Below are positions 30,462 to 47,422 of a stretch of DNA of 64,000 bases, in pieces. The number at the start of each line of letters is the position of its first letter. Position 1 is the first letter of the stretch. A model generated the notes under the pieces. The model saw only the letters and a program-made list of their open reading frames with translations, ran no database searches and was not told where the DNA came from. Where the stretch lies: contig JACRHH010000010.1 of NCBI GenBank assembly GCA_016212095.1, positions 1 to 64,000 of the forward strand, read 5' to 3'. The DNA comes from Nitrospirota bacterium. Its GTDB lineage: Bacteria > Nitrospirota > Thermodesulfovibrionia > SZUA-242. The translations under genes and the position numbers were made by a program.

Positions 30462-31622
30462 ATGACGCGTAAAAGCCGTTATCTCATATTTGCATTGGTG
30501 GCATTTGCCGTCATCGCCGCCGCCGTTTATTACATGAAACGCCCGAAACCTGTTCCGGTTGTCGTTGCAGCCGTGGATCGTGGCCGCGTGACAGCCGCCG
30601 TTGCCAACACGCGGGCCGGAACCGTGAAGGCCTGCCGCAGGGCGAAGCTTGCGCCGCCTGTGGGCGGACGGGTTTCGCGGCTTCCGGTGCGCGAGGGCGA
30701 CCGCGTGAAGGGCGGCGAAATTCTGCTTGAACTCTGGAATGACGACCTTGCGGCTCAGGTTCGCGTTTCGGAAAGCGAGGCCGCAGCCGCGCATACGGCG
30801 GTTGAGGAAGCCTGTTTGATGGCCGCGCAGTCGCGGCGCGAGTCTGACCGGGCGGTTACGCTGAAGGGCAAGGGGCTGGCCACCGACGAGGCAAGCGAAC
30901 GCGCGCAGGCAAACGCCGACGCGTCCGGCTCACGCTGTCGGGCCGCGAGCGAGCGGGCGAAAATGGCGGACGCCGCAGTGGACATGGCCCGCGCATCGCT
31001 AGAGCGCACAATCCTTCGCGCGCCGTTTGACGGGCGAATTGCCGACGTGACCAGCGAGCTTGGCGAGTTCGTGACGCCGTCTCCGCCCGGCATCCCCACG
31101 CTTCCGGCTGTCGATCTGATCGACGACAGTTGTCTCTACATATCCGCGCCGATTGACGAGGTTGACGCTCCGGCTGTCAGAATCGGCATGGACGTAAAAA
31201 TCACGCTCGACTCCATCCCCGGACGCGCTTTTTCCGGAAAAGTCCGGCTGATCATGCCGTATGTGCTTGAGCTTGAAAAACAGGCGCGAACGGTTGATGT
31301 CGAGGCGGATTTCCTGAGCGCAGCAGACACGAAGGGGCTTCTGCCCGGATACAGCGCCGACATGGAGATCACCCTGAACGCCCGCGACAACGTGGTTCGC
31401 GTGCCGACCGAGGCGGTGCTTGAGGGCGGGCGGGTGCTTGTTCTTCGCGCCGACGGCCTGATAGAGGAGCGAAAAATTACGTCAGGCATAGCGAACTGGA
31501 AATCGACCGAGGTTCTATCCGGGGTTGCCGAAGGCGACCGAGTCATCACGTCGCTCGACCGCAAGGACGTGAAGCCCGGCGCATACGGCGTGGCAGAAAC
31601 GCCGGGCGCGTCTGCCAAGTGA
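30462..31622 (+). CDS. Periplasmic adaptor (HlyD/MacA-like) of a MacB-type exporter
   Basis: A 386-residue membrane-fusion protein: one N-terminal membrane anchor (about 7-25), lipoyl half (KLAPPVGGRVSRLPVREGD), a helical hairpin (about 95-170), second half (RAPFDGRIADVTSELGEFV) and a beta-barrel (about 220-370). It partners an ABC exporter; its stop codon originally overlapped the start of the ATPase gene now at 34185 (GTGA overlap), a coupling now split by the inserted cassette. GAGG precedes ATG 30462. Confidence 0.85.
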   Translation: MTRKSRYLIFALVAFAVIAAAVYYMKRPKPVPVVVAAVDRGRVTAAVANTRAGTVKACRRAKLAPPVGGRVSRLPVREGDRVKGGEILLELWNDDLAAQVRVSESEAAAAHTAVEEACLMAAQSRRESDRAVTLKGKGLATDEASERAQANADASGSRCRAASERAKMADAAVDMARASLERTILRAPFDGRIADVTSELGEFVTPSPPGIPTLPAVDLIDDSCLYISAPIDEVDAPAVRIGMDVKITLDSIPGRAFSGKVRLIMPYVLELEKQARTVDVEADFLSAADTKGLLPGYSADMEITLNARDNVVRVPTEAVLEGGRVLVLRADGLIEERKITSGIANWKSTEVLSGVAEGDRVITSLDRKDVKPGAYGVAETPGASAK

Positions 31623-31623
31623 T
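31611..31623 (+). repeat. 13-bp direct repeat, left copy
   Basis: TCTGCCAAGTGAT at the end of the adaptor gene (SAK-stop). The identical sequence lies at 34177-34189. Bases on either side differ (G before and A after here; A before and C after at the right copy), so the repeat is exactly 13 bp and bounds the inserted segment. Confidence 0.9.
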
Positions 31624-31639
31624 AAGGGGGAAAATCAAT

Positions 31640-31915
31640 ATGCGCAAGGAATATGATTTCACAGGAGCTAGCCGAGCCAAAGACGTTCCGCATCTGGCAA
31701 GGCTACAGGCTGAAGAAACCGCCGGAAAGACACGTATCACAATCAATATCGACAATGATGTGCTGGCAAGCTTCCGCGAACGCGCCGAAAGCAAGGGCAT
31801 CGGCTACCATACGCTCATAAATTCGGAACTGCGCCGGGCGGTTTCCCCTGAACAGACGCCGGTCACGGTTGAAGCGTTGCGGCAGGTGTTGCGCGAGGAA
31901 CTGAAGGCGGCGTGA
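31640..31915 (+). CDS. Orphan BrnA-like antitoxin
   Basis: A 91-residue protein opening with MRKEYDFTGASRAKDVPHL, the BrnA signature, followed by the ribbon-helix-helix part RITINIDNDVLASFRERAE and a C-terminal helical extension. No BrnT gene is beside it; the left repeat of the cassette begins 17 bases before the start codon, where a brnT gene would normally end. AAGGGGGAAAA precedes ATG 31640. It may be a DNA-binding repressor of the cassette or a former antitoxin cut from its partner. Confidence 0.7.
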   Translation: MRKEYDFTGASRAKDVPHLARLQAEETAGKTRITINIDNDVLASFRERAESKGIGYHTLINSELRRAVSPEQTPVTVEALRQVLREELKAA

Positions 31916-32170
31916 CGGGAACTCCAGCCAGCCATCCCAAGGCCGCGCAAGCAAGATAAACATTCCAATCGTCGCCTCAAAAGCCGTAATATATGGGGCA
32001 ACTTTTGCTTGTTGGGAGGGTGACTTGGAAATATTGGCCTGCATCGACGGGTACAACGAGTTCTGAAATGCATATTCTCAAAATATCTGTAGCGTGCTGC
32101 AAACATGACATTCGCAAATGGTAGAGATTTCACACATGGAATACAGGTTAAAGCCGGGGAGGAATTAAGA
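31916..32170. other. Spacer inside the cassette
   Basis: About 255 bases between the BrnA-like gene and the GHKL-nuclease gene. No coding frame with similarity is visible; base composition shifts here from GC-rich to AT-rich. It probably holds the promoter of the second gene. Confidence 0.4.
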
Positions 32171-34114
32171 ATGTCTTTAATGCATTTGAATGTGGCAAGA
32201 AAAGTACGACACTACAGGCTATCGAAAAGCAGGGCTTATGTCGCCATATTTGAGGCGATATCCAACTCCATTGATGCCATAAAAGAGAGAGAAACGTCCG
32301 GATCAATATCTGTATCATTTAAGAGAGATACATCACAAACAAGCCTATTGCCAGATATTGAAGATAGCGGGCGATTGAAAGAGGTCACCGTATCCGATGA
32401 CGGGATTGGATTCAATAATGAGAACTATTCGTCATTTTTAGAGTCAGACACAGCAAAGAAGGAACAACTCGGCGGTAGAGGTCTTGGACGATTTAGTTGG
32501 CTTAAGGTGTTTGAGAAAGTTGAGATCATAAGCCATTTTGTTGCAGACGGTAAAGGACATAAGCGCACATTTACTTTTGAAAGGACGTCTGACGGAATTT
32601 CCAATCCATCCCTGATAGGTACTGACGATCATAAGTTCTCCACAACAGTCAAATTCGTCAATCAGAAGAAGGAATGGGAAATCCCCAAAAGACAGATCAC
32701 CTTCGCGGAAAAACTTATCGAGCACTTTCTTCCTTTGTTTGTAAGCGGAACTGCCCCTAAAATTGTTTTAGCCGATGATGACAAGGGCGATAAAATCATT
32801 GTCAATGACTATTTCAAGCAACACTATAAAGGTCTTATTTCTGAGAAGCCACTTGATGTGTTAAATAAAAGCTTCCTGCTTTCTGTACATAAGACATGTA
32901 TCGGATCATGTAATAGCCTTGTTCTGCTGGCCAATTACCGCGCAACCAAGGTGGTAAATCTTTCAAAACATATCGTTGACCTTGAAAATAAGCTCTTCGA
33001 TAAGGACGAGGAGTTTTTCATCATAGCCTTCATCAAAGGAGATTATCTCGATTCTGGCGCATCACCAGAAAGGGACGAATTCCGTTTCGGATATGATGAA
33101 GAGCAGGACGAAATAGATGTTAAAGCGATTATTACACAGGCGTCAGACATTATTAAGAAAGAAATATCTACTTATTTGCAGCCGATTATGGAAAAAAAGA
33201 AGAGGCGGCTCGAAAACATAGTTTCTACCGTGTCACCTGAATACCGGCATGTCATAGCAAAGAATCCGGCGATTGTGGATGAAATCAGTCCCAATGCATC
33301 CGATACTGAAATTGAATCCATACTGCATCGTGAAGAATACAAGCAGAAGCAGGCAACAATAAAGGCAATAGAAAAAATACTGAAAGCCAATTCAATGGAG
33401 CATGAAAAGGTTCTGGAAGCCTTCAAGGAGATTGCTGAAACAGCGAAGGCGGAGCTGGCTAAATATGTCTTATGGAGAAAGCACATCATCAACCTTCTGG
33501 AAAAAAGAATTTCATGGAACGCGGATAAGACATTTGAAAAGGAAGAAACCCTCCATAACTTGTTTTACTCTATGAGAAAGACATCTAATGAGGTTCCCCA
33601 TGAGGCTAACAACCTGTGGCTTGTTGATGAAAGGCTTAATTTCCACAGTTATTTGGCTTCGGATAAGTATTGGGATGAAGAAAGCCGTCCTGACGTGCTG
33701 ATTTATAATTCCCCGGTACTGTTTAATAACAGCGAAAACCCGGAGAACAGTTTTGTTGTCATAGAATTTAAGAGACCAAGCCGCAACGACTATGACGAGG
33801 AGGAAAATCCAATTGATCAGGTTTATGAATATATCGACAAAATCCGTTCAAAGAAAGCCAAACATCCAAACGGACAGTTGATCATAATAACCGAAAACAC
33901 ACCTTGCTATGTGTATATTATTTCTGACCTTACGGAAAAAATGACTAAGTATTGTCGTAAGAACGATTTCATCATTACCCATGATGGGTTAGGATTCTTT
34001 TATTACCATAAAGAATACAGGGCTTATATAGAGGTTCTTTCTTATCAGAAGGTTCTAAAGGATTCTAAGCAGAGAAACCGTATCTTCATGAAGAAAATCG
34101 GTGTCCAGCCGTAG
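32171..34114 (+). CDS. GHKL ATPase fused to a PD-(D/E)XK nuclease-like domain
   Basis: A 647-residue protein. The N-terminal third is a GHKL (HSP90/gyrase/MutL/MORC) ATPase with the N-box FEAISNSIDAI (about residue 27), VSDDGIGF (about 76) and GGRGLGRFSW (about 101). A charged helical middle follows (about 345-450). The C-terminus has RPDVLIYN (about 506) and FVVIEFKRP (about 531), then a Q and a Y, matching the D-x(n)-E-x-K core of PD-(D/E)XK nucleases. The arrangement recalls the bacterial MORC-like ATPases linked to restriction systems. It is probably a defence or DNA-processing effector. GGGGAGGA precedes ATG 32171. AT-rich codon use marks recent transfer. Confidence 0.8.
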   Translation: MSLMHLNVARKVRHYRLSKSRAYVAIFEAISNSIDAIKERETSGSISVSFKRDTSQTSLLPDIEDSGRLKEVTVSDDGIGFNNENYSSFLESDTAKKEQLGGRGLGRFSWLKVFEKVEIISHFVADGKGHKRTFTFERTSDGISNPSLIGTDDHKFSTTVKFVNQKKEWEIPKRQITFAEKLIEHFLPLFVSGTAPKIVLADDDKGDKIIVNDYFKQHYKGLISEKPLDVLNKSFLLSVHKTCIGSCNSLVLLANYRATKVVNLSKHIVDLENKLFDKDEEFFIIAFIKGDYLDSGASPERDEFRFGYDEEQDEIDVKAIITQASDIIKKEISTYLQPIMEKKKRRLENIVSTVSPEYRHVIAKNPAIVDEISPNASDTEIESILHREEYKQKQATIKAIEKILKANSMEHEKVLEAFKEIAETAKAELAKYVLWRKHIINLLEKRISWNADKTFEKEETLHNLFYSMRKTSNEVPHEANNLWLVDERLNFHSYLASDKYWDEESRPDVLIYNSPVLFNNSENPENSFVVIEFKRPSRNDYDEEENPIDQVYEYIDKIRSKKAKHPNGQLIIITENTPCYVYIISDLTEKMTKYCRKNDFIITHDGLGFFYYHKEYRAYIEVLSYQKVLKDSKQRNRIFMKKIGVQP

Positions 34115-34176
34115 TGGATCGGTACAATATGGGTGACAATGAAGTTTATCCGGCAACGGGTTCCGCCCATGCCCCA

Positions 34177-34189
34177 TCTGCCAAGTGAT
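34177..34189 (+). repeat. 13-bp direct repeat, right copy
   Basis: TCTGCCAAGTGAT, identical to 31611-31623. The GTG within it (34185-34187) is the start codon of the ABC ATPase, which lacks any ribosome site of its own here because it was formerly coupled to the adaptor gene. Confidence 0.9.
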
Positions 34190-34889
34190 CCGTCTCGATT
34201 CCGTAAGCCGCGTTTTTCAGGTGGGCGATCAGGAGGTTCCGGCGCTCGACTCCGTGAATCTGGCCGTGGGGCGCGGCGAGTATGTGTCGATCATGGGGCC
34301 GTCCGGATCGGGCAAGTCCACGCTTTTAAACATAATCGGGCTTCTCGACCGGCCATCGTCGGGCCGGTACTTCCTTGAAGACCGCGACATCACCGCGCTA
34401 ACAGACGAGGAAGAGGCCGAAACCCGCCGCAACCGCATCGGATTCGTCTTCCAGTTTTTTCATCTTGTGCCGCGCATGACAGCCGCGCAGAATGTTGAGC
34501 TTCCAATGATGCTTGGCGGCGTTCCGCCAAAAATACGGGCGGAGCGCGTTGCCGCCGCGCTGGATGCGATGGGGCTGTCAGACCGCGCCGACCATCGGCC
34601 CGGACAGCTCTCCGGCGGACAGCGCCAGCGCGTGGCGATTGCGCGGGCAACGATCATGCAGCCTGCGGTGCTTCTGGCCGACGAGCCGACCGGCAACCTC
34701 GACCGGGCTTCCGGCGCAGAGGTTGTGCATGTGATCGAACGCCTGGTTGACCGCGGAATAACGCTGGTTGTGGTCACTCACGACCCGGAGCTTGGCGGCA
34801 GGGCCCGCAGGCGCATAAGAATGGTTGACGGCAGGGTGGTGGAGGATTCGGCCAGCAATACGGCCAGTTATTCGCCAACAGGGCCATGA
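34185..34889 (+). CDS. MacB/LolD-type ABC transporter ATPase
   Basis: A 234-residue ATPase with Walker [11 protein letters not shown]-loop FVFQFFHL, signature [14 protein letters not shown], Walker [13 protein letters not shown] and the H-loop VVTHDPE. It energises the FtsX-type permease encoded by the next gene (ATGA overlap at 34886). The start is GTG 34185, inside the right repeat of the cassette; there is no Shine-Dalgarno sequence before it. Expression may now depend on read-through from the cassette or be reduced. Confidence 0.9.
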
Positions 34890-36094
34890 TGCGGATAACC
34901 GACATCTTCCGCTTTGTGCGAAACGCCGCCGGAGGCTACCGCGTGCGAACCGCGCTGATGCTTCTTGCGATGGCGATCGGCGTGGCGTCTGTCGTCATTC
35001 TCACCTCGCTTGGCGAGGGCGCGCGCGTTTATGTGAACAACGAATTCGCGTCGCTCGGCACGAATCTTCTTATTGTTCTGCCCGGCAGGAACGAGACGTC
35101 GGGCGGCCCGCCGATGATGGTTACCGGAACATCGCGCGATATTACAACCGGCGACGCGATGGCGCTTCTGCGCCATTCGTCGGTGCGCCGCGTCGCTCCG
35201 CTCACCGTTGGCGTTGCGCCGGTGTCGTGGGGCGGACGAACGCGCGAATGCACGATAGGCGGATCGACGCCCGACATGTTGAGCATACGCAACTGGAAGC
35301 TGGCGCAGGGCGGATTTCCCGCGCCCGACGACCCTGACCGCGCCTCTCCGGTTGCGGTTATCGGCGCGAAAATACGGCGCGAGCTTTTCGGCTCGCATTC
35401 GGCTGTGGGCGAATGGCTGAAGATCGGCGACCGCCGTTTCCGCGTGACCGGCATTCTCGCGTCCGAGGGCCGCTCCATGGGGTTCGACGTGGAGGAACTT
35501 GTGCTTGTTCCTGTTGCGTCGGCGCAGGCGCTTTTCAACACGCCGTCGCTTTTCCGGGTGATGGTGGAGGCCAAAAGCCGCGATGTTATAGAGCGGGCGC
35601 GGGCCGATGTGGTCTCCACGTTCAAGCTTCGGCATCAGGGAGAGGAGGACGTAACTGTTATTACTCAGGACGCCGTGCTTGCTACGTTCGACAAAATACT
35701 TCGCGCCCTCACCTTCACTGTTGGCGGAATAGCCGCGATAAGCCTTGGCGTGGCCGGAATCCTGATAATGAACGTGATGCTGGTTGCGGTTTCGCAGCGC
35801 ACTTCCGAGATCGGCCTGTTGAAGGCGCTTGGGGCGTCGCGGCGGCGGATATTGGCGCTTTTCCTCACCGAGGCGGCGATGCTTTCCTGCGTTGGCGGCC
35901 TTTTGGGGCTGATGCTCGGATACGCCGGAAATCAGGCCGTTATCTGGCTCTATCCCGCGTTTCCGGTCACGGCTCCGTGGTGGGCTGTGGCGGCGGCGCT
36001 TGGAATCGCGCTATCAGCCGGGCTGATATTCGGCGCGATGCCGGCATGGCGCGCGGCAAAGCTCGATCCGGTGATGGCGCTGGCGAGGAGGTAG
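34886..36094 (+). CDS. MacB/FtsX-type ABC transporter permease
   Basis: A 402-residue permease with a membrane helix near 25-45, the MacB-type extracytoplasmic core (about 50-270) and the FtsX helices (about 280-395) with TSEIGLLKALGASRRRILA. Together with the ATPase (ATGA overlap) and the adaptor at 30462 it forms a tripartite exporter that pushes periplasmic substrates through an outer-membrane channel. It is paralogous to the orphan permease at 913. Two exported proteins of unknown function follow and may be its cargo or partners. Confidence 0.9.
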   Translation: MMRITDIFRFVRNAAGGYRVRTALMLLAMAIGVASVVILTSLGEGARVYVNNEFASLGTNLLIVLPGRNETSGGPPMMVTGTSRDITTGDAMALLRHSSVRRVAPLTVGVAPVSWGGRTRECTIGGSTPDMLSIRNWKLAQGGFPAPDDPDRASPVAVIGAKIRRELFGSHSAVGEWLKIGDRRFRVTGILASEGRSMGFDVEELVLVPVASAQALFNTPSLFRVMVEAKSRDVIERARADVVSTFKLRHQGEEDVTVITQDAVLATFDKILRALTFTVGGIAAISLGVAGILIMNVMLVAVSQRTSEIGLLKALGASRRRILALFLTEAAMLSCVGGLLGLMLGYAGNQAVIWLYPAFPVTAPWWAVAAALGIALSAGLIFGAMPAWRAAKLDPVMALARR

Positions 36095-36196: not shown

Positions 36197-37654
36197 ATGA
36201 AGGCTCCATTGGTTCTGTTGTTTCTGCTGTTGGCATCCGTTTTATCCGCCGCGGACAGTCCGCAGGAGAAAGTTTCGATCGAAGATGTCATTCCGCTAAC
36301 CGCCGCCAACATGCGCGGCCACAGGATGCTCTACGATGAGGGCTGGTACGTTATCACGTCCAGCCGTAAGGCTCTGGAATACGCGAAGGAGCATTCGATC
36401 TCGGCATCGAAAGACGCTCTTTTGCGCGCCGCGAAAAGTCAGCCGCAACGGGCGAAGGAGCTCAAAGAGAATCTGGCTTCGGATCTGGCCAGCTCGGTCG
36501 ATACCGCAAAAAGCATAGCCAAAACCGGCGCGGAAACAAGCGCCGCCATCCGCGCCGCCACAGACGACGCCACAAGCGCCGAGCTGGCGTATGCCCGCGA
36601 AGGGTTTTCACGGGCGTGGGAGAAGCTCATTAAAGGCAATCTATCGATAGCAAAGCGCACCGAGGCCGATCGGAACGAACTGGCGTCTCTGCCCGGAAAT
36701 CTTGTTGGCGGCATAAAAAGCGACTGGAGCAACATCCACCAACTGGCAGAATCTGCCAATAAAAAATTCGGCGGCAGCATAGAAAACTCGTGGGACGCGG
36801 CATTCAAGCGGGCAAGCAGCGAATTCCGGGCCGAGTACGAGAAATCGGGCGAAAAAGAGAACTCGCTCATGGCGCTTGGCCCGATACTTTGGGGCTGGCT
36901 GAAATCGTTCTACTATGGCATTGCCGAGCCTTCCGCGAAATCTGTTGTGAAAACAGGCGTCACTGGCGTTACCCACGGCGTATTCCTGCCGGTTGCCGAC
37001 ACCGCAGTTGTGGCGGGGCGCACGGTTCAGTCGGTCGGGCTCACGTTTTACTACACCGGCAAAACCGGCGTGAATATTGTGTCGCCCACGGTTGAAGGCG
37101 GCCTGCTTGGCGGACTGTCGCTTCTGTCGCTTGCCACGGTTCCGCCCACATTCGCCGTCGGACAGACCGCTGGCGCGATCAATCAGGTTGCCTTCACAAC
37201 CGCCGCGCCGGTTTACGCCGCCGGTGAAGCCGCCGCGAAAACCGCCGCCCACACCGCGAAATACGTGGCGTTCGTGGCCTACGACGGCGCTCACGGCGCA
37301 ACGGAGGTGGTCATCAATCAGGCGTCGTCGGGCGTGGTGCTTGGCTACAACGCGCTCACCGCCATTCCGGCACATCTCATGATGGGCGTTTTCGACGCCG
37401 CAGTCTTTCTCGCGTGGGACGGCCCGAATCTCGTAATAGCAACCGCAAAGGGGAAGCTGCGGACGAAAGACAACGCTGGTGATTACTCGGCAGGGGATAT
37501 TCCCGTGGGCGCGGTGGTCGATCTTGGCAAACTCCAGACCGAAAGTGGGATGGAAGTGAAAATAATCTCTAATGATCCGGCTGTCATCCGGGACGTGCTT
37601 GGAAAAATTCCGTGCGATCTGGGAGGGAAAAGCGATGCGTGCGAAAGTAAATAG
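36197..37654 (+). CDS. Large exported protein of unknown function, first of a paralogous pair
   Basis: A 485-residue protein with a Sec signal peptide (LVLLFLLLASVLSAA). Residues about 40-230 are amphipathic helix rich in Ala, Ser, Lys and Glu; residues about 230-420 are Gly/Ala/Val-rich with aromatic residues at intervals, like membrane-seeking or densely packed strands; the C-terminus has DIPVGAVVDLGKL. It shares this plan, and the blocks EPSAKSVVK and PVGAVVDL, with the next gene. No enzyme motif is visible. GGAGGGG precedes ATG 36197. It lies 102 bases after the permease on the same strand. Confidence 0.75.
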   Translation: MKAPLVLLFLLLASVLSAADSPQEKVSIEDVIPLTAANMRGHRMLYDEGWYVITSSRKALEYAKEHSISASKDALLRAAKSQPQRAKELKENLASDLASSVDTAKSIAKTGAETSAAIRAATDDATSAELAYAREGFSRAWEKLIKGNLSIAKRTEADRNELASLPGNLVGGIKSDWSNIHQLAESANKKFGGSIENSWDAAFKRASSEFRAEYEKSGEKENSLMALGPILWGWLKSFYYGIAEPSAKSVVKTGVTGVTHGVFLPVADTAVVAGRTVQSVGLTFYYTGKTGVNIVSPTVEGGLLGGLSLLSLATVPPTFAVGQTAGAINQVAFTTAAPVYAAGEAAAKTAAHTAKYVAFVAYDGAHGATEVVINQASSGVVLGYNALTAIPAHLMMGVFDAAVFLAWDGPNLVIATAKGKLRTKDNAGDYSAGDIPVGAVVDLGKLQTESGMEVKIISNDPAVIRDVLGKIPCDLGGKSDACESK

Positions 37655-39521
37655 CATTACATTTCAACTGGCTACCGCCGCGCTCTGCATGGCGGCGCTA
37701 TCGTCATGCGCCACAACCGGCCCGGACGATCCGCTGAAAAACACAAAGAAGCTGGCGCGGGAAGGGCATGTTTCACTCTACAACAACGGCGCTTTCCGTG
37801 TTCCGAACACATCCATAAGCCTGATTCCGCCCGGCCCGTCCACAATGGAACTGGCGGGAGAGATGGCAGGCGCGCGCGCGAGGGAATCGTTCGTGAAGGC
37901 CGTCCGAAATGCCGCCGATTCGGTTTATATTGTTTCGGAGGGAACGAAAATCAGCTACCGCTGGGCTTCGGACATTCATGAGGGCTCCGGGGATTTGGCC
38001 GACGCCATAAAGAAATACTCGCGCGAAAACAGCAGGCTGATTGTGTACAGGTCGTCCGATTACGGCAAAAAGATCGCCGGGGAATCGTGGAAATCAGCCG
38101 GTGAAATATGGGCTTCGGGCGGCAAGACAGGCGATGAGATAGTGCAACGTTCCGGTGAAACCGCAGAGGCCGTAAGCCGCGAAAGCGCCGCAGCGGGCGA
38201 GAAAATCACAGCGGAATCGCTGGCGATGGCGCGCGATGTTTCAGCGTCAGGCACGGCGCGCTCGAAATCCGCGCTGTCATACGCCGGGAAATCGTTTGTG
38301 CTCGGCTACGCGGCTGTGCCATCTAAACTTAAGGGCAGGATCGGCGAGATGGGCGAGGACATCAGCAAGGCCAACCTTGGCGGAATAATGCATGAGGAGA
38401 ACGAGCGGCGAGCCAGATGGTCGGGAATGGCAACCGACATCATCGCAGACACGGTGAAGAACTATGGCGGCAACGTGAAGCGGTCGTTCGACAATGCGCG
38501 AAACGAATTTAACGACTCGTACCGCACAACCGGCCTGAGCCTTGCCGCGCTCAAGTCGCTTCGGTGGGTATTGCAGGGCGTGTTGTGGGACGCAACAATC
38601 GAGCCTGCCGCAAAGATCACAGCCGCGTCCGTCGGCTATGTTGGCGTGAACGCGGTTGCGTTTCCAACGATGGTGGTTGTCCGCGAGGGCATGTCCGTAA
38701 CCAGTCTGGCGGTCGAGGTTACGTGGGACGCGTCGAAGGCCGGATATGATCTTGTCGCGCCAACCGGAACCGCCGCTGTCGCGTCGATCTACGGACTGGT
38801 GGATTTCACCGGATCGAACCTGTTCGCGGGCACTGTCGGCACTGTCGGCGGCGCGTCGGGCTATGCGCTTCAGGGTTCGGGCAAGGTGGCGGGCGTAACG
38901 ATAAGGGCGGGCGGCCATGCTGGAGCGGCCATCACCGAATACATCGGCGTGCCGCTCACGGCGGCTGGCGTTGCGGTTGGCGGCGGCGCGGTAGGCACGG
39001 TTGTTGGCGCGGCAGGCGCAACCACCGGCGCAACGCTTGCGGTATCGGGCGAGGCGGCGTCTGCCGGAACCTACGTTTTCGGCAACATAATAGCGGGGGC
39101 AACGCTTGTCGGCGGAACAGCCGGATCGACTGCCGGCGGCGCGGCGGCTGGAGTGTATGAGCTTTCGAAGGCGGTTGTTGTGCCGACAGGCTACGAGCTT
39201 GGAAGCGGCATAGTGATCAGCTACGGCACGATGTCGCACATCGCCGCGCACTCCATTCTTGCCGTGTCGGACTGCTCATACATGGTGCTGTCGCTGGAAG
39301 GGCCGCGCTGGGTGCTTTATGCCGTGAAAGGGAAAGGCGGCGAAGGCGAAGAAATGCCGGTTGGCGCGGTTGTTGACCTTGACAAAGTGAGAGAATCCGG
39401 CGAGGAGATCTATTATCTTCCGGTTTCAGACGGCGAGATGAAAGGCGCGGTCGATTCGGTGTACGACAACCTGCCGGAGCTGAAACCGGCGGGCGGGGAG
39501 GCATCAACTTCACAGCCGTAA
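37635..39521 (+). CDS. Large lipoprotein of unknown function, second of the pair
   Basis: A 628-residue protein with a lipoprotein signal (CMAALSSCATT, lipid Cys near residue 25). The plan matches the preceding gene: charged amphipathic helices with about 11-residue periodicity (residues 120-240, LEA-like), a block WVLQGVLWDATIEPAAK, a long Gly/Ala/Val-rich zone (about 330-540) and a C-terminal EMPVGAVVDLDKV block. GGGAGG precedes ATG 37635, and it overlaps the previous gene by 20 bases, so the two are coupled. I recognise no known family; a surface or envelope structural role is inferred. Confidence 0.75.
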   Translation: MRAKVNSITFQLATAALCMAALSSCATTGPDDPLKNTKKLAREGHVSLYNNGAFRVPNTSISLIPPGPSTMELAGEMAGARARESFVKAVRNAADSVYIVSEGTKISYRWASDIHEGSGDLADAIKKYSRENSRLIVYRSSDYGKKIAGESWKSAGEIWASGGKTGDEIVQRSGETAEAVSRESAAAGEKITAESLAMARDVSASGTARSKSALSYAGKSFVLGYAAVPSKLKGRIGEMGEDISKANLGGIMHEENERRARWSGMATDIIADTVKNYGGNVKRSFDNARNEFNDSYRTTGLSLAALKSLRWVLQGVLWDATIEPAAKITAASVGYVGVNAVAFPTMVVVREGMSVTSLAVEVTWDASKAGYDLVAPTGTAAVASIYGLVDFTGSNLFAGTVGTVGGASGYALQGSGKVAGVTIRAGGHAGAAITEYIGVPLTAAGVAVGGGAVGTVVGAAGATTGATLAVSGEAASAGTYVFGNIIAGATLVGGTAGSTAGGAAAGVYELSKAVVVPTGYELGSGIVISYGTMSHIAAHSILAVSDCSYMVLSLEGPRWVLYAVKGKGGEGEEMPVGAVVDLDKVRESGEEIYYLPVSDGEMKGAVDSVYDNLPELKPAGGEASTSQP

Positions 39522-39566: not shown

Positions 39567-40259
39567 TCAGGGCGCATCGAGCCCGATAATGCCGTCCATA
39601 ATAATGGTGGCGCAATTCAGACATTCGTTTTTTACAGTCCGCCAATCATGCCACCGCGAATCGAGGTTCTTGTACTCGGCAAGGTTCATCTCGTCCAGAT
39701 CGTACGGCAACGGATTCGCAAGCTGAATCTGAAGCTGCTGCAAGGCCGATTCATCGTTTGGCTGCGGATACAGGCTGTCGAAACACCTCATGGATGCGAT
39801 AAAATCATCGCTGCCCATGCGGTTTGCAAGAACTGCAAAATCCAGATAGTCCCGCGTGGCGTTCCTTTTTATTATCAGAATGCCCTTTATCCGCAATATC
39901 TCGGCCTGTGTGGGAACGGTGATTTTCCCTTCCGGACGCTCAATGCAAGTGGTTTCAAGCGGTTTGCTTCTGACCAGTTGACGTATTCCTGTCTCGATGC
40001 CGTCAAGGCTGCCAAGAATCTGAACAGGCCGCGTAATGCGGGCGGTATGCCACCCGGCAACGGATTCCAGTTGCGCCAGCACTTCGTCGAAGCGAATCCG
40101 CAGGTCGGTCAGCACATGATCGGCGTCAACAGACAACCTGTGATCCGCGAACATCGCCGCAGCGGTTCCACCCACCAGCACTGCATCGGGAAATATGCCT
40201 TGAAGCCGGACGGCGGCGGAAAGAACGCGCTCCCATTCAGGCAAGATTTTTTTTTGCAT
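39567..40259 (-). CDS. Nucleotidyltransferase-fold toxin-like protein (AbiEii-like)
   Basis: A 230-residue protein. GGTAAAMFADHRLSVDADH (about 31-49) fits the GG/S...DxD core of nucleotidyltransferases such as the AbiEii/AbiGii toxins, and ATRDYLDFAVLANRMG further on fits the family's conserved helix. It would modify a nucleotide, RNA or protein. ATG 40259 is preceded by the small gene that overlaps it by 23 bases; the longer open frame to 40382 only covers that gene in another frame. It probably forms a toxin-antitoxin-type pair. Confidence 0.7.
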   Translation of the reverse strand: MQKKILPEWERVLSAAVRLQGIFPDAVLVGGTAAAMFADHRLSVDADHVLTDLRIRFDEVLAQLESVAGWHTARITRPVQILGSLDGIETGIRQLVRSKPLETTCIERPEGKITVPTQAEILRIKGILIIKRNATRDYLDFAVLANRMGSDDFIASMRCFDSLYPQPNDESALQQLQIQLANPLPYDLDEMNLAEYKNLDSRWHDWRTVKNECLNCATIIMDGIIGLDAP

Positions 40260-40458
40260 AATGCATCCAGAAGTGATAACGCTGCGCGTATGGGTCGAAA
40301 CAACGGGAAACGCATATGCGCAACACTTTCTCCATGACAGACCTGTCACGGAGCGCCGCATTGCGCAGAACCGCCCAGTCACACCGCTTTCCCCTACTGA
40401 TTATGTCGTCGATGGCGGCCAGGGTGAAGCCCTCGTGGTTCAGATGGCGATGTTGCAT
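40237..40458 (-). CDS. Small partner of the nucleotidyltransferase, antitoxin-like
   Basis: A 73-residue protein, MQHRHLNHEGFTLAAIDDI through RNAALRDRSVMEKVLRIC to QRYHFWMHYAKK. This is a compact helical family usually encoded just before nucleotidyltransferase toxin-like genes, and I infer it to be the antitoxin. It starts 20 bases after the gspD stop codon and overlaps the next gene. An in-frame extension into gspD to 40566 is unlikely. Confidence 0.6.
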   Translation of the reverse strand: MQHRHLNHEGFTLAAIDDIISRGKRCDWAVLRNAALRDRSVMEKVLRICVSRCFDPYAQRYHFWMHYAKKNLA

Positions 40459-40477: not shown

Positions 40478-42334
40478 CTAATACTCCAGCCTCTTGTTGA
40501 TATGCCGCAGCTTGTTCCGGAACTGCTCGGTTGCCGAATCGCCGTCGCCCGGATTGCCGACGACATGCGGCGTGACCATGATGAGAAGCTCGGTTCTTAT
40601 CAAATCCTCGCCAATACTGCCAAATAGCCAGCCGATGTACGGGATGGATGAGAGATACGGAATCCCCTTGTTTGTGCTTATCTTTTTCTCGGAGATGAGT
40701 CCGCCGATCACCAGCGTGTGGCCGTTCTGCACAATCGCGGTTGTCTTTGCCTTGCGGGAATTGAACGTCGGATAATCTTTACCGCCCACTGATGTGGCCT
40801 TGGTAGACACGTTGCTGATCTCCTGCGAGATCTTCAGCGTGACCATGCCTTTTTCGCTGATGGTCGGCGTGACTTCCAGAATGGTGCCGGTTGTCTTGTA
40901 CTGTATCTGGCTGGTCAGGTTGCCCGATGTGCTGTCGCTTGTCAGTGTGCCGGTAGCTGTCGGAACCTCGTCGCCAACCTCAATGCGCGCCTCCTTGGTG
41001 TCGGTTGCCAGCACGCTGGGGCTTGAAAGAACCTTCAGCTTGTCCTGAGATGCGAACATGCCGATGAAATAGTTGAATTTATCGGCGCTGAATATCGTTG
41101 TGAATAGTCCGGCTGAATTTGTCACGGGCGTTTTCATGTCTTTCAGCGATCCGGATCCGCCTCCGATCGTGGTGGAAGAATCGGATGCCTTGACCAGCCA
41201 TTCAACGCCGTATTTCTCGGACTCGCCCAGCGTCACCTCCGCAACCATCACGTCTATCAGCACCTGCTTGCGCGGCGTGTCTAGTTTGCGGAGCGATTCG
41301 ACTATTTCAAGGTAGTTCTTCGCGGTTGTCTTGATGATGATTGCGTTGATGTCATCGTATGTGGTTATGGCGATGTCGCCGCTCACCTCGCTGAGCGTTG
41401 GAGCGCTTGCAACAGGCGAAGGCGCAGCCGGTGTTGCAGGCCTGCGCTGCTGCTGTCCGGTGGCCGGCGGCGCTACGGGCTTGCGCACAGGCTGCGTTGC
41501 GGCTTTCGCCTGTCCTTGGGTTCCGTAGATCGCCTTCAAAATCTCGGCAAGCGATTTGGCCTCGCCGTGCTCGGCGTAATAAACGAAGGTTTTTACAGTG
41601 TCGGTTTCGGTTTCGGCAATGTCAACCGCCTCAAGCACCTTCATCAACCGGGCAAGCGACGCCGGGCGTGCCGTGATGATAAGCAGGTTCGTAGGCTCGT
41701 AAACAACAAGATCAGCGCCCTTGGGCAGCAGGTTTCTCAGAATGTTCGAAGCGTCCGTCGCCTTTACGTATTCGAGCGTAACAATCTGCGTGACAAACCC
41801 GGCGTCAAGCGACATCTCGATCTCCCGGCCTTTTTCCGTGGGCAACGGAAGCCCCTTGGCCTGATCCAGCGGCGTTATCATGTAGAAATTGCCGTCCTTG
41901 ACGGCGGTCAGGTTGTTCAGCTCAAGCACCGCCTGAAAGACCGAGAAAAGGTCATTTACAGGAAACTTGTGGTTCGACTGAATGGTGACCTGCCCGGAAA
42001 TGCCCGGCGGCAGGATGTAGTTGATTCCAAGAATATCGCCCACGGTCTGGATCACGGTGTTGATGTCGGCGTTCTCGAAGTTCAGGATGATGTTCTTCCC
42101 GTCATCTCCGGCCTCGACGCGCGCCGCAATCGGCTTGCGCGGAGATTCAGCCTCGGCCTGTCTGGCGACAGGCTCCGACATAACCTCGGCAAGAAACGGC
42201 GGCGGAAGTTCGGGCGTTTCCGTCTTGACTGCCTGGGAAGGCTCCTCCGATGTCCGCACGGATTCCCGCGGAGCGCACGACGCCATGATGAGCGTCAGGA
42301 GCGCGGCGACAGGAAAAATCATCAATCGTGTCAT
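40478..42334 (-). CDS. gspD: Type II secretion secretin (lipoprotein)
   Basis: A roughly 618-residue secretin forming the outer-membrane pore of the type II secretion system. A lipobox (LIMASC) suggests it is lipidated, which can replace a pilotin. N0 and N1-N3 domains are recognisable (NFENADINTVIQTVGDILG; VTLEYVKATDASNILRNLL), with a Gln/Pro/Ala-rich insert near residue 275, then the secretin core with VLIDVMVAEVTLGESEKYG, VLSSPSVLATDTKEARIEVG and GLISEKKISTNKGIPYLSSI. It ends the operon of gsp genes. Confidence 0.9.
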   Translation of the reverse strand: MTRLMIFPVAALLTLIMASCAPRESVRTSEEPSQAVKTETPELPPPFLAEVMSEPVARQAEAESPRKPIAARVEAGDDGKNIILNFENADINTVIQTVGDILGINYILPPGISGQVTIQSNHKFPVNDLFSVFQAVLELNNLTAVKDGNFYMITPLDQAKGLPLPTEKGREIEMSLDAGFVTQIVTLEYVKATDASNILRNLLPKGADLVVYEPTNLLIITARPASLARLMKVLEAVDIAETETDTVKTFVYYAEHGEAKSLAEILKAIYGTQGQAKAATQPVRKPVAPPATGQQQRRPATPAAPSPVASAPTLSEVSGDIAITTYDDINAIIIKTTAKNYLEIVESLRKLDTPRKQVLIDVMVAEVTLGESEKYGVEWLVKASDSSTTIGGGSGSLKDMKTPVTNSAGLFTTIFSADKFNYFIGMFASQDKLKVLSSPSVLATDTKEARIEVGDEVPTATGTLTSDSTSGNLTSQIQYKTTGTILEVTPTISEKGMVTLKISQEISNVSTKATSVGGKDYPTFNSRKAKTTAIVQNGHTLVIGGLISEKKISTNKGIPYLSSIPYIGWLFGSIGEDLIRTELLIMVTPHVVGNPGDGDSATEQFRNKLRHINKRLEY

Positions 42335-42378
42335 GTGGTTACCCATATCAGTTTAATCGCATTTCCTTAAAATGTATG

Positions 42379-42951
42379 TCATTTTGGCTTGGGCTGCCCG
42401 CGCTTTGCCTGATCCTTTTCCGTCGTCGCGCCTCGCAGGTGAAGCTCCACAGGCTCGTTGTTCCACCGCAGCTTCACATCCAGACGGCCTATCTCGATCA
42501 GTTCGAAATCGCCGAACATGTCGCCGACCCTATACGACCTCGCCCTCTGCCCCTCGACCTCTATCACGGCAACCTGTTCGCCGACCGTATTTTCCAGTAT
42601 GCCCTTAAGTGAAATCGATGGCATGACCGGCGGCGGTGGCGGCGGCGCTGGCGGCTGAACCGGCTGCGGCGGCGCTTCAGGCGCGGCAGCCGCGGCTCCT
42701 GTCTTCATCGCCGCCTGCGTCTTTCTTCCGGCTCCTCGATCCGGATTGAACAGGCTGCGTTCCAGAATGTCCGCTCCGTCGGTAGCAACATATTTCACAT
42801 CAGGAAGGGCTGCCGCGCCCCTGACGGCTTCGCCGCCTTCCGCCCCAAACTCCGCCAGAGGATCGTACTGCGTCATGACGCCGTGAAGCGTAACCAGCGA
42901 ATATGCCAGCAATCCCATCAGCGCCATCTCCAGGGCAATTTTGCGTATCAT
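42379..42951 (-). CDS. gspC: Type II secretion inner-membrane protein GspC-like
   Basis: A 190-residue protein with one N-terminal membrane anchor, a periplasmic linker with LERSLFNPDR, a Pro/Ala-rich spacer, and a homology region (ISLKGILENTVGEQVAVIE, YRVGDMFGDFELIEI) that in GspC contacts the secretin. The start overlaps the gspM stop (ATGA). It lacks a PDZ domain, so it is the short form. The secretin gene follows after 44 bases. Confidence 0.8.
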   Translation of the reverse strand: MIRKIALEMALMGLLAYSLVTLHGVMTQYDPLAEFGAEGGEAVRGAAALPDVKYVATDGADILERSLFNPDRGAGRKTQAAMKTGAAAAAPEAPPQPVQPPAPPPPPPVMPSISLKGILENTVGEQVAVIEVEGQRARSYRVGDMFGDFELIEIGRLDVKLRWNNEPVELHLRGATTEKDQAKRGQPKPK

Positions 42952-43493
42952 AACTTCATGATCCCGTGTATGGCAATTTTAACATTCAGGTTGTCCGGCT
43001 CCCTGATATTCACGAGCGACAGCGAAAGCTTGCTGACGCGCAGACCAAGATTCTCCGCCTCGATGCGCCGCACGAAAAACGTGAACGCCTGCATGTTGCC
43101 GCGAAGCTCGGCCTGAAGCGGTATTTCCACGAATTCGCCCTTCTCGATCTGGGCAAGCGGCTTTATGGCCATAAGCTCAAGACCGGCATCGCGGGCATGT
43201 CTGCCGACCACGCTCTGAAGCTCGGCAAATCCGAGCGAGGCGTTCGGGCCGGCAAGAAAACGTTTTTCGTAAGATTCCCGTTCAGAAACCAGATCGGACG
43301 CAACCTCACCGCCAGACTCCTTCCGGGCAGCCATGGCCCGGTACTTGACGAGCTGGCTGTATCGGGCGGCAATGTCCTCCTCCAGCCCGATCGGCTCGAT
43401 TCGCGGCTGAATCACGAAAACGTACAAGACCGCCGTAGCGGCAAGGACGAAGAGCGCCAGCTTTTTCTTATTTTTTAACAGTTCCTTCAACAT
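42948..43493 (-). CDS. gspM: Type II secretion protein GspM/PilO-like
   Basis: A 181-residue bitopic protein: a basic N-terminus, one membrane helix (about 12-30), a coiled coil and a ferredoxin-like periplasmic domain ending NVKIAIHGIMKL. It partners GspL in the inner-membrane platform that transmits movement from the ATPase. It overlaps both neighbours by a few bases. The call rests on position between gspL and gspC and on this topology. Confidence 0.75.
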   Translation of the reverse strand: MLKELLKNKKKLALFVLAATAVLYVFVIQPRIEPIGLEEDIAARYSQLVKYRAMAARKESGGEVASDLVSERESYEKRFLAGPNASLGFAELQSVVGRHARDAGLELMAIKPLAQIEKGEFVEIPLQAELRGNMQAFTFFVRRIEAENLGLRVSKLSLSLVNIREPDNLNVKIAIHGIMKL

Positions 43494-44787
43494 TCTTCCA
43501 ATACATCCTGAGCGAGAAATGCTCCCCCTGCTCCTGCACCATTATGGGGCCAGAAACCTCCACGCCCGAAAACATTCCGGAACCGGCAATTATGCCCACA
43601 AGCTCCGAGGATCGGGCCGAGAAGCCGTCGATCTCAACCTTGCCCTTTTCGTCCATCGAAAAACTCGCAAGCCATGTGTCCGGCGGCATTATCCTGCTCA
43701 ACTCCTGGAGCGCGCGAAAAGGCGCGTTGCCTTCCGCGAAATATGGGCGTAGCACCGCAAGCGAGCGGATCGCGCCTTCCCGCTCCTTCGATCCCTCGGA
43801 AGCGCGCTTCACGGTCTGTTTCAGTTCGGCCAGCTCCCTGTCTATTTCGGCAAGCGCCGTGGTCTCCTTGCGGCTCTGTTCATGGTGCTGAAGCGAGTAG
43901 GTACACATAAGGCTTACCACCAGCGCCGAAAGCAGCATCCGGTGATAATCGCGCTTGCCCCTGAAACCGGCGGGCAACAGATCTATGTCTGAACCTCGTC
44001 GTCTAAACGGCAGGGCCATGCGCCGCGTCGAGAGCGTGGGGCTTTTCTCCTCTGCCCTGAAAACGGCTGCATTCAATATTGCCGCAAGCTTTGACGGCTC
44101 GAATCCGTCACGCGCGCCATGGACGGCTATTCGGCTGCATCCGTGCTGTTCGATATCCCGCGAGATGGAGCGGGCCAGCGATTCGTAGACAAGCTCGCTC
44201 ATCGGCGAGCGCTCAATGCTCCGGAGCACAACCGGCCTGCCGTTTTTGAAGATCATGAAATCGAAGTCGGTTCCGTTAACGCCGAGGCAGGCGGTTTCGG
44301 CGTCGGAACGCCGCTTGCAGTGAAACCTGAAAGCGGCTATTTCCGCCGACAGAATCGTGATCCCCGCAGAAATCAGCGCGTTCAGATACGGATCGAGCAA
44401 CGAGCGGCGCACGCATACCGCGAGAATCCGCATCGCATCGCGCCGCTTCTCGATGATCCTGTATCCCCAGTAGAAGCTGTCGAGCGAGATCGGAAGGTAG
44501 CGTTCAAGCTCAAACGGTATGGCGCGTTTCGCGTCGGAGCGTTTCATGGGCGGCATTTCGAACATCTGGACAACGGCCATGCCCAGAGGAAGATAAAGCC
44601 GCGCGCGGTCGATCTTTCGCGCCTTGAGTTCCTGCGTCATTATCTCGGCAACCGGAAGCGGCCTGCTTTCCGACGGCTCGCATACGCATTCGTCGATAAT
44701 TCCGCCTCCGGCCAACATGCTGCGCTCCACCGAGAAACGAATGCTGTTGCGGTCAACAAATACAAGCGCGTGGCTAGCGGGAAACAT
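43468..44787 (-). CDS. gspL: Type II secretion protein GspL-like (PilM/PilN fusion)
   Basis: A 439-residue protein with a cytoplasmic actin-like part (about 1-270; FVDRNSIRFSVERSML, PFELERYLP) that binds the ATPase GspE, a single membrane helix (about 275-295), and a periplasmic ferredoxin-like domain (about 330-430) with GNAPFRALQELSRIMPPDTW. It recruits GspE to the membrane together with GspM. It overlaps gspK by 14 bases and gspM by 26. Confidence 0.8.
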   Translation of the reverse strand: MFPASHALVFVDRNSIRFSVERSMLAGGGIIDECVCEPSESRPLPVAEIMTQELKARKIDRARLYLPLGMAVVQMFEMPPMKRSDAKRAIPFELERYLPISLDSFYWGYRIIEKRRDAMRILAVCVRRSLLDPYLNALISAGITILSAEIAAFRFHCKRRSDAETACLGVNGTDFDFMIFKNGRPVVLRSIERSPMSELVYESLARSISRDIEQHGCSRIAVHGARDGFEPSKLAAILNAAVFRAEEKSPTLSTRRMALPFRRRGSDIDLLPAGFRGKRDYHRMLLSALVVSLMCTYSLQHHEQSRKETTALAEIDRELAELKQTVKRASEGSKEREGAIRSLAVLRPYFAEGNAPFRALQELSRIMPPDTWLASFSMDEKGKVEIDGFSARSSELVGIIAGSGMFSGVEVSGPIMVQEQGEHFSLRMYWKNVEGTVKK

Positions 44788-45703
44788 CGTCCCTCCATTG
44801 GAGAACGTTCACATCCTTGTGTCCGCCACGGGTTACCCTCATCACAACAGCCTCGACGGTTCTTGCATATGTGGTTCCGGCAGGCTCGGCGGACGCAACG
44901 ATGCGGAAACAGTTGGAGGAAGTGCTGTTGATTCCGACACGGCGGGCAAGATCGGGAATCGAGAGCACAGGGCCGGACGCCCGCTGCAAGATAATGCTCT
45001 GGATGCTTGAGTATGGCACGCCCAACAGATCCATCATCTCCTGCGAAACGGTGTTCACGTTCATTCCGCCCGCCGGACATATCGTGAAGTAATCGCGGAT
45101 ACCTGTAAGCTCCCGCTCGGCGTTTCCGTAAAGTATGTCCTTGTCCATCCCCTTGAGCAGAAGCAACTCCTCCACCGAGCTGAAATTGCCGTTCTTTGCC
45201 TCGTAGCCAAGCGGCTCGTAGAAGTCTGTTTCAGCGCCGTTTAATCTGTGCTCGTCGTCCGGATCGCGCCAGTCGGCGATAGAATCGGCTATCTCGTCGG
45301 CGCCCTTGTCGTCAACGCCTGAGCGCGCAAGCATCGTGACGAAAGAATCGCGCGGCGCGGAGTTCAGGCTTATGCGGGCGCTCTCGTCGAAAATGCGAAC
45401 CGTAACCTTGCCGAAGCCGGTCTCGCGCTCCTCCTCGAACGGCTCTCCCATGTTGGCCACGATCAGCCTTTCCTCCGTGTCGGTATAATCCACCGTGTCG
45501 TCCTTGTCGTCAAGCAGAAACCGCACCGCATCCTCGTAACCGGCAATCGCCTGATAATACGCCTGGGTATCTTCCCGGAAGTTTCTGGCGCTCGCAAGCC
45601 CGGCCCGCATCGAGACCGCAAACGACGCGCCGACAACCGCAAGAAGCACCAATACCCACAGCGTCATCAGCAGCGCAAGTCCGCGTTCGTCCGTTTTCCG
45701 CAT
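44774..45703 (-). CDS. gspK: Type II secretion minor pseudopilin GspK
   Basis: A 309-residue minor pseudopilin. It has a short leader ending ERGLALLMTLWVLVLLAVVG, a prepilin-like helix, and the large GspK globular part with helix-hairpin-helix-like repeats (VDDKGADEIADSIADWRD, SSVEELLLLKGMDKDILYG). GspK caps the pseudopilus tip. The genes for GspG, H, I, J and F are not in the window. Confidence 0.85.
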   Translation of the reverse strand: MRKTDERGLALLMTLWVLVLLAVVGASFAVSMRAGLASARNFREDTQAYYQAIAGYEDAVRFLLDDKDDTVDYTDTEERLIVANMGEPFEEERETGFGKVTVRIFDESARISLNSAPRDSFVTMLARSGVDDKGADEIADSIADWRDPDDEHRLNGAETDFYEPLGYEAKNGNFSSVEELLLLKGMDKDILYGNAERELTGIRDYFTICPAGGMNVNTVSQEMMDLLGVPYSSIQSIILQRASGPVLSIPDLARRVGINSTSSNCFRIVASAEPAGTTYARTVEAVVMRVTRGGHKDVNVLQWRDDVSR

Positions 45704-45715
45704 CGCCCATAACCG

Positions 45716-47413: not shown

Positions 47414-47422
47414 TGTTGTTTC

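What the first reader, a model, noticed from the sequence alone, without database searches (positions are those of the whole stretch)
36197..39521. Paralogous pair of large exported proteins with no recognisable family
Two adjacent, overlapping genes encode an exported protein and a lipoprotein with the same plan: LEA-like amphipathic helices, an E-P-[SA]-A-K block, a 190-210-residue Gly/Ala/Val-rich zone, and a PVGAVVDL C-terminal block. The pattern suggests an ancient duplication and two partners that work together in the envelope.
Basis: partly seen in the sequence, partly recalled or inferred. Interest (0 to 1): 0.72.

Follow-up and report, generated by a model that had tools for sequence, protein, structure and literature searches.

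The report
Paired envelope proteins with matched helical arms
Two neighbouring bacterial genes, always found as a pair, encode sister envelope proteins of an undescribed family that appear to be long folded-back helical rods; in one of them the two arms grow by the same number of 11-residue units, as if the rod's length mattered.

Summary
Gene A (36197-37654, exported) and gene B (37635-39521, lipoprotein) overlap by 20 bp and are true paralogues (HHalign E = 1.5e-27; composition-matched shuffles never reach the real score). Neither matches Pfam, NCBIfam, PHROGs, PADLOC or solved structures by sequence. The pair recurs as A-then-B in two other Nitrospirota groups, a 'Proteobacteria' MAG and Leptospira replicons, so the duplication is ancient. 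The MacB neighbour is incidental: nearest relatives have that exporter without the pair, and the pair usually lives elsewhere.

New: the 'Gly/Ala/Val zone' is not compositional noise. Both it and the hydrophilic N-terminal arm show the ~3.67-residue (11/3, hendecad) helical period. Spacing between conserved anchors in B is otherwise nearly fixed across phyla, except in two places, one on each arm at similar distance from a conserved Gly turn. These lengthen together: +33/+33, +55/+55, +66/+66 residues (N side up to 2 short). I read this as a long antiparallel helical hairpin whose arms pack in register, anchored to the outer membrane by B's lipid.

Architecture is inferred from sequence (AlphaFold failed, pLDDT 31). 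The function, a two-part envelope strut, is a hypothesis.

The parts
36197..37654 (+). gene A: exported paralogue, 485 aa
   Evidence: open frame with SD GGAGGGG; orthologues in at least 16 other genomes; dN/dS about 0.1-0.2
37635..39521 (+). gene B: lipoprotein paralogue, 628 aa
   Evidence: open frame with SD GGGAGGG; lipobox LSSC; orthologues in Nitrospirota, one 'Proteobacteria' MAG, Leptospira
37635..37654 (+). 20-bp A/B overlap (likely translational coupling)
   Evidence: an overlap of 1-23 bp in 15 of 17 junctions, gaps of 28 and 334 bp in the other two
36197..36253 (+). A signal peptide (no lipobox in the window copy)
   Evidence: sequence; orthologues toggle between lipobox and plain signal
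37635..37709 (+). B lipoprotein signal with Cys25, +2 = Ala
   Evidence: sequence; conserved in all B homologues with an intact N-terminus
36365..36847 (+). A N-terminal arm (residues 57-217), hydrophilic helix
   Evidence: family-averaged hydropathy period 3.65, p<0.002
36848..36928 (+). A tip: conserved SG218 turn up to the EPSAK block (residues 218-244)
   Evidence: spacing 71 and 27 residues constant in all 13 homologues; helix break in the low-confidence model
36929..37384 (+). A C-terminal arm, Gly/Ala/Val-rich (residues 245-396)
   Evidence: hydropathy period 3.68, p = 0.002 or better
37385..37612 (+). A C-terminal small domain (residues 397-472) with DGP...PVGAVVDL
   Evidence: weakly predicted beta-beta-(beta)-alpha-beta-alpha pattern, same in B
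37842..38531 (+). B N-terminal arm (residues 70-299)
   Evidence: hydropathy period 3.70, p<0.002
38094..38291 (+). B N-zone hendecads (residues 154-219), the first of two places where B homologues lengthen
   Evidence: 11-residue layout; +31/+53/+66 residues in homologues
38532..38603 (+). B tip: conserved TTG300 turn up to the EPAAK block (residues 300-323)
   Evidence: 75-77 residues on one side and 76 on the other in every complete homologue
38604..39194 (+). B C-terminal arm, Gly/Ala/Val-rich (residues 324-520); the second variable zone is residues 376-435
   Evidence: hydropathy period 3.71, p<0.002; +33/+55/+66 residues in homologues
39195..39476 (+). B C-terminal small domain (residues 521-614) with EGPRW...PVGAVVDL
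   Evidence: among the better conserved regions; profile match to A

Best explanation
A and B are the two subunits of an undescribed envelope complex. Each is a long antiparallel alpha-helical hairpin. A hydrophilic N-terminal arm runs away from the membrane to a conserved [ST]-G turn (A218, B300), and a Gly/Ala/Val-rich arm returns and packs against it with hendecad (11-residue, 3 turns) geometry; the small residues allow close helix packing. The conserved N-terminal block and the C-terminal small domain therefore lie together at the base. B's lipid, with a +2 residue that is not Asp, holds the base at the outer membrane, and A (itself lipidated in some species) is held by pairing with B, probably through the outward hydrophobic faces of the Gly/Ala/Val arms. 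The conserved tips reach into the periplasm and touch another layer or protein, so the pair works as a strut, tether or scaffold of set length. Steps: homology, pairing, lipobox, hendecad periodicity and coupled arm lengths are shown from sequence. The hairpin packing is strongly suggested. Membrane side, A-B contact and strut function are inferred.
For: Two-gene module with constant order in distant bacteria. Paralogy. Hydropathy period 3.65-3.71 in both arms of both families, permutation p<=0.002, no beta period. Spacing of all other anchors varies by at most 1-2 residues across B homologues. The two variable zones of B grow together: N-zone/G-zone +31/+33 (L040), +53/+55 (L042), +66/+66 (L041, L043), 0/0 in the short members outside Leptospira. 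The 2-residue shortfall is one deletion shared by L040 and L042. The expanded units are clean 11-mers or 33-mers, with 33-bp DNA repeats in L040 and L042, and differ in sequence between the two zones, so one zone was not copied from the other. L041/L043 group with the unexpanded L046, so expansion arose at least twice. Precedent: coiled-coil hairpins of periplasmic adaptors lengthen by inserting heptads in both helices (PMC4446572). B is always lipidated, A sometimes.
Against: AlphaFold with three-row alignments gave pLDDT about 31 for both, so no fold is demonstrated. Coupling rests on four complete expanded proteins, perhaps three independent events. The two Leptospira copies break strict coupling (-10 or -9 in the N-zone, -4 in the G-zone). 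Conserved prolines in the C-terminal arm (B 324, 344, 376, 440, 517) may split it into several helices. Some 19-residue windows reach the usual hydropathy for membrane insertion (about 1.6). No neighbour gene or experiment points to tethering. The pair is dispensable in many Nitrospira, where only relics remain.
Confidence: 0.42

Rival explanations
1. A two-part alpha-helical pore former or membrane-remodelling system: the Gly/Ala/Val arms insert into a lipid bilayer and oligomerise, as in the ClyA-like binary toxins (YaxAB, XaxAB), perhaps against competitors or in the cell's own outer membrane.
For: Adjacent helical genes with small-residue-rich hydrophobic zones; some 19-residue windows reach hydropathy 1.6; binary helical pore formers exist (PMC5935710).
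Against: No sequence or profile match to any ClyA-family structure or Pfam family. B is always a lipoprotein, unusual for a released toxin. The zone keeps an amphipathic 11/3 period and low mean hydropathy (0.7-0.8). Arm lengths are coupled, which a free membrane domain would not need.
Confidence: 0.15
2. LEA-like or apolipoprotein-like protectants: amphipathic 11-mer helices that lie on the periplasmic face of a membrane and stabilise it under drying, freezing or salt stress.
For: 11-residue helical repeats in both arms; very weak profile resemblance to apolipophorin-III (E = 2.1).
Against: LEA proteins are hydrophilic and tolerate irregular lengths (own knowledge). Here half of the protein is hydrophobic, anchor spacing is nearly invariant and C-terminal domains are conserved. 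No LEA family matched.
Confidence: 0.1
3. Accessory subunits of the MacB-type exporter directly upstream (30462-36094), for example its outer-membrane-side partner or its substrate.
For: Same strand, 103 bp downstream of the permease; MacB-type or FtsX-type permeases also lie about 2-8 kb from the pair in L041 and in Leptospira p74.
Against: G001 and G002 carry the same permease (61-63% identity) followed by a second permease and no A/B; 12 of 13 relatives have a related permease, but only G000 of 230 genomes of its class has B; most pairs elsewhere have no MacB-type neighbour.
Confidence: 0.05
4. Surface-exposed lipoprotein pair, such as an adhesin or fibre, with the rods pointing outward.
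For: B is a lipoprotein; in L. biflexa most p74 genes rise in late biofilm (PMC4863578), though these two genes are not named there. Long undecad-containing coiled coils occur in surface adhesins such as NadA (PMC6191539).
Against: No surface-anchoring or adhesin domain; strong length and sequence conservation without hypervariable regions.
Confidence: 0.12
5. The likeness is only shared low-complexity composition and there is no family.
For: Both zones are rich in Gly, Ala and Val.
Against: Window-shuffled controls never reach the real score, HHalign E = 1.5e-27, conserved non-repetitive C-terminal blocks, purifying selection, orthologous pairs in distant groups.
Confidence: 0.01

Closest known systems
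Periplasmic adaptor proteins (MacA, EmrA, AcrA family)
   Same: Predicted antiparallel helical hairpin whose two helices lengthen together by whole coiled-coil repeats (PMC4446572); envelope location.
   Different: No lipoyl, beta-barrel or membrane-proximal domain; hendecads, not heptads; one arm Gly/Ala/Val-rich; no exporter partner conserved; no sequence match.
Hendecad/undecad coiled coils (phiX174 H tube, NadA, Omp-alpha)
   Same: 11-residue repeats with three helical turns in cell-envelope proteins (PMC7354561; PMC6191539).
   Different: Those are parallel oligomeric tubes or stalks; here the length coupling points to an intramolecular hairpin, in two paralogous subunits, with extreme Gly/Ala/Val content on one arm.
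ClyA-like binary alpha-pore-forming toxins (YaxAB, XaxAB)
   Same: Two adjacent helical genes with hydrophobic zones.
   Different: No sequence relation; lipoprotein; zone amphipathic, not a short hydrophobic head; no toxin context.
LEA group 3 proteins / apolipoproteins
   Same: 11-residue amphipathic helical periodicity.
   Different: Not uniformly hydrophilic; fixed architecture; conserved terminal domains.

Membership tests
Periplasmic adaptor (HlyD/MacA) family | lipoyl / barrel-sandwich domains (PF13437, PF16576, PF13533) | tested here: not met
   No such match in A, B or 13 homologues of each; the true adaptor at 30462-31622 scores E about 1e-15
Periplasmic adaptor (HlyD/MacA) family | helical hairpin whose two arms change length together | tested here: inconclusive
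   Coupled +33, +55, +66 in B fits, but hairpin packing is not shown structurally and A does not vary
Hendecad coiled coil | 11/3 hydrophobic periodicity and indels in multiples of 11 | tested here: met
   Period 3.65-3.71; G-zone indels +33/+55/+66; explicit 11-mers
Hendecad coiled coil | knobs-into-holes packing in a solved or confident structure | not testable with these tools
   AlphaFold pLDDT 31
ClyA-like binary pore-forming toxins | sequence or profile relation to XaxA/YaxA/HblB/ClyA | tested here: not met
   No PDB sequence match with single proteins or 13-member profiles
ClyA-like binary pore-forming toxins | pore formation in membranes | not testable with these tools
   needs liposome assays
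LEA proteins | hydrophilic throughout and matching an LEA Pfam family | tested here: not met
   C-terminal arms have mean hydropathy +0.7; no LEA match
MacAB exporter component | conserved co-occurrence with MacB | tested here: not met
   and neighbourhoods
Outer-membrane lipoprotein (B) | lipobox Cys with +2 not Asp | tested here: met
   LSSC-A in the window; Ala, Thr, Lys or Val at +2 in all homologues with an intact N-terminus; actual localisation untested

The most novel reading that the evidence does not exclude
A/B is a length-set, two-subunit periplasmic strut: a lipid-anchored pair of hendecad helical hairpins whose reach is tuned in evolution by adding equal numbers of 11-residue units to both arms, so as to match or set the distance between envelope layers in Nitrospirota, Leptospira and relatives.
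Probability: 0.15. Interest if true: 0.8.

Novelty: new variant of a known kind. Interest (0 to 1): 0.55.

Why it matters
It defines an undescribed two-gene envelope protein family present in at least two phyla by record name, including the tractable saprophyte Leptospira biflexa. It also shows that what looks like low-complexity Gly/Ala/Val sequence is an ordered helical arm. The matched growth of the two arms is a rare sequence-level signature of which helix packs against which, and raises a testable question: whether some bacteria use adjustable helical rods to set envelope spacing.

Tried and rejected
Known family: Pfam, NCBIfam, PHROGs, PADLOC and PDB sequence searches with single proteins and with families gave only chance-level hits. 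AlphaFold on three-row alignments: pLDDT about 31 for both, so I did not run fold searches on these models. Exporter partnership: rejected on synteny. Phage or viral origin: none found in phage records or viral contigs; plasmids only Leptospira. Third partner: LPP20-like exported proteins lie upstream in L002, L032 and L034, but similarity is weak and they are absent elsewhere. Heptad or canonical coiled coil: the power at period 3.5 is far below that at 3.67. Simple whole-protein periodicity in B was weaker and less consistent than in A; it became clear only per arm and family-averaged. A-versus-B arm length differences (roughly 74 and 67 residues) hint at the same coupling but depend on an uncertain alignment and are not counted. 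Leptospira locus-tag literature search: no paper found.

Full report
What is there. Gene A (36197-37654) encodes a 485-residue exported protein, gene B (37635-39521) a 628-residue lipoprotein. They overlap by 20 bp, and each start has a good Shine-Dalgarno sequence. Neither protein matches Pfam, NCBIfam, PHROGs, PADLOC or PDB sequences beyond chance, alone or as families.

They are paralogues. BLASTP with composition adjustment gives E = 2e-9, mostly from a C-terminal stretch of 78 residues (38% identity). The 13-member profiles align over 357 columns with E = 1.5e-27. Shuffling B within 20-residue windows, which keeps the Gly/Ala/Val bias in place, never reproduces the score in 2000 trials.

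Relatives. The pair was found in a Nitrospirae MAG (L002) and a 'Proteobacteria' MAG (L003), B in 22 of 396 sampled genomes of the phylum, and the pair on Leptospira plasmids p74 and pE30-1, where A-B is followed by genes annotated as diguanylate cyclase and Ser/Thr kinase. One deep Nitrospirota group has B in 12 of 14 genomes. In Nitrospira and its relatives the pair is patchy (A in 11 of 270); at one conserved place near polA several genomes keep only fragments. In the window organism's own class, only this genome of 230 has it, so horizontal acquisition or repeated loss is likely. Order was A then B at all 17 junctions examined; 15 overlap by 1-23 bp, and L042 (B start uncertain) and L035 have gaps of 28 and 334 bp.

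The exporter. Same-family genomes G001 and G002 have an operon of ABC ATPase, permease 1 and permease 2 (G001 also has the adaptor directly upstream), with no A/B. In the window genome the permease-2 orthologue (67-68% identity) lies about 33 kb away at 913-2133 on the other strand, and a low-GC ATPase gene sits between adaptor and ABC ATPase. The pair therefore appears to sit in a rearranged exporter operon. Most other neighbourhoods lack such an exporter. Partnership with MacB is not supported.

Hendecad arms. Family-averaged hydropathy has its strongest period at 3.65 (A N-arm), 3.68 (A Gly-rich arm), 3.70 (B N-arm) and 3.71 (B Gly-rich arm), with permutation p of 0.002 or less for the helical band and no beta period. 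11/3 is 3.667, the hendecad value; the heptad value 3.5 is not supported. Laid out in elevens, the repeats are visible by eye in expanded homologues (for example SGDKIIAGGIE in the N-zone and GGGFVAGEAVK in the G-zone of L042) and more faintly in the window's B. The DNA of L040 and L042 carries 33-bp tandem repeats there.

Coupled lengths. Using anchors in 13 complete B homologues, six of eight intervals are constant to within 1-2 residues, even in Leptospira at about 30% identity. Only two vary: the N-zone (75 residues in short members; 106, 128, 141, 141 in L040, L042, L041, L043) and the G-zone (60; 93, 115, 126, 126). The gains are +31/+33, +53/+55, +66/+66, +66/+66. The 2-residue shortfall is a deletion shared by L040 and L042. 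Four more Nitrospira-group homologues and L046 (whose middle is masked as N) are unexpanded in both zones. L041/L043 group with the unexpanded L046, apart from L040/L042, so expansion arose at least twice, and L040 and L042 differ by a further +22/+22. The unit is 33 residues in one lineage and 11 in the other, in both zones alike, and the zones' units differ in sequence, so one zone was not copied from the other. If each event could have added one to six units independently, three matches have a chance of the order of 1 in 200 (a rough estimate of mine). The exceptions are the two Leptospira copies (-10/-4 and -9/-4).

Interpretation. The simplest geometry is an antiparallel hairpin: the variable zones lie about 120-140 residues either side of the conserved TTG300 in B, with 75-77 residues from FV.G(Y) to TTG and 76 from TTG to AP[TS]. 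A has the same plan around SG218 (71 and 79-83 residues). Coiled-coil hairpins of periplasmic adaptors are known to lengthen by repeats in both helices (PMC4446572). If each arm were one straight helix, B would reach about 34 nm and A about 24 nm (my arithmetic, 1.5 A per residue); conserved prolines make these upper limits. B always carries a lipobox with +2 not Asp; A does in about 6 of 13. Hence the proposal of an outer-membrane-anchored, two-subunit helical strut or tether. AlphaFold with only three sequences could not test it (pLDDT 31).

What is shown and what is not. Shown from sequence: genes, paralogy, pairing, selection, periodicity, coupled lengths, lack of known family, no exporter linkage. 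Inferred: hairpin packing, A-B complex, membrane side. Speculative: strut or ruler function.

Noticed in passing
window 31640-34114: BrnA-like antitoxin gene (no BrnT partner identified) and a 669-aa GHKL-ATPase gene of about 40% GC (surroundings 56-62%) between the adaptor and the ABC ATPase; looks like a recent insertion.
   Followed up: partly
window 913-2133 (-): Orthologue of the second permease of the relatives' exporter operon, now about 33 kb from the first permease: the operon was split in this genome.
   Followed up: yes
window 39567-40382 (-): AbiEii-like nucleotidyltransferase gene between the pair and the type II secretion operon.
   Followed up: no
window 40478-50552 (-): Type II secretion-like operon (secretin and partners), largely conserved in G001 and G002 without the A/B pair nearby.
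   Followed up: partly
L033 10324-11670 and L034 7185-9144 (genome G168): Gene B is split between two places of one contig about 278 kb apart, with the break near residue 145: a rearrangement or misassembly inside B.
   Followed up: no
L037, L038, L039, L047 and G313: Short remnants of B in several Nitrospira genomes; those in L038, L039 and L047 lie at the same site near polA, showing repeated loss of the pair.
   Followed up: partly
L030 8302-12071: On Leptospira biflexa p74 the pair is followed by genes annotated as diguanylate cyclase and Ser/Thr kinase (the genome paper's table calls the latter homoserine kinase), also in L. kobayashii.
   Followed up: partly
L032 4576-7736, L034 2304-5401, L002 352-1560: LPP20-like or weakly related exported proteins upstream of the pair in two different groups; possible but unproven third partner.
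   Followed up: partly
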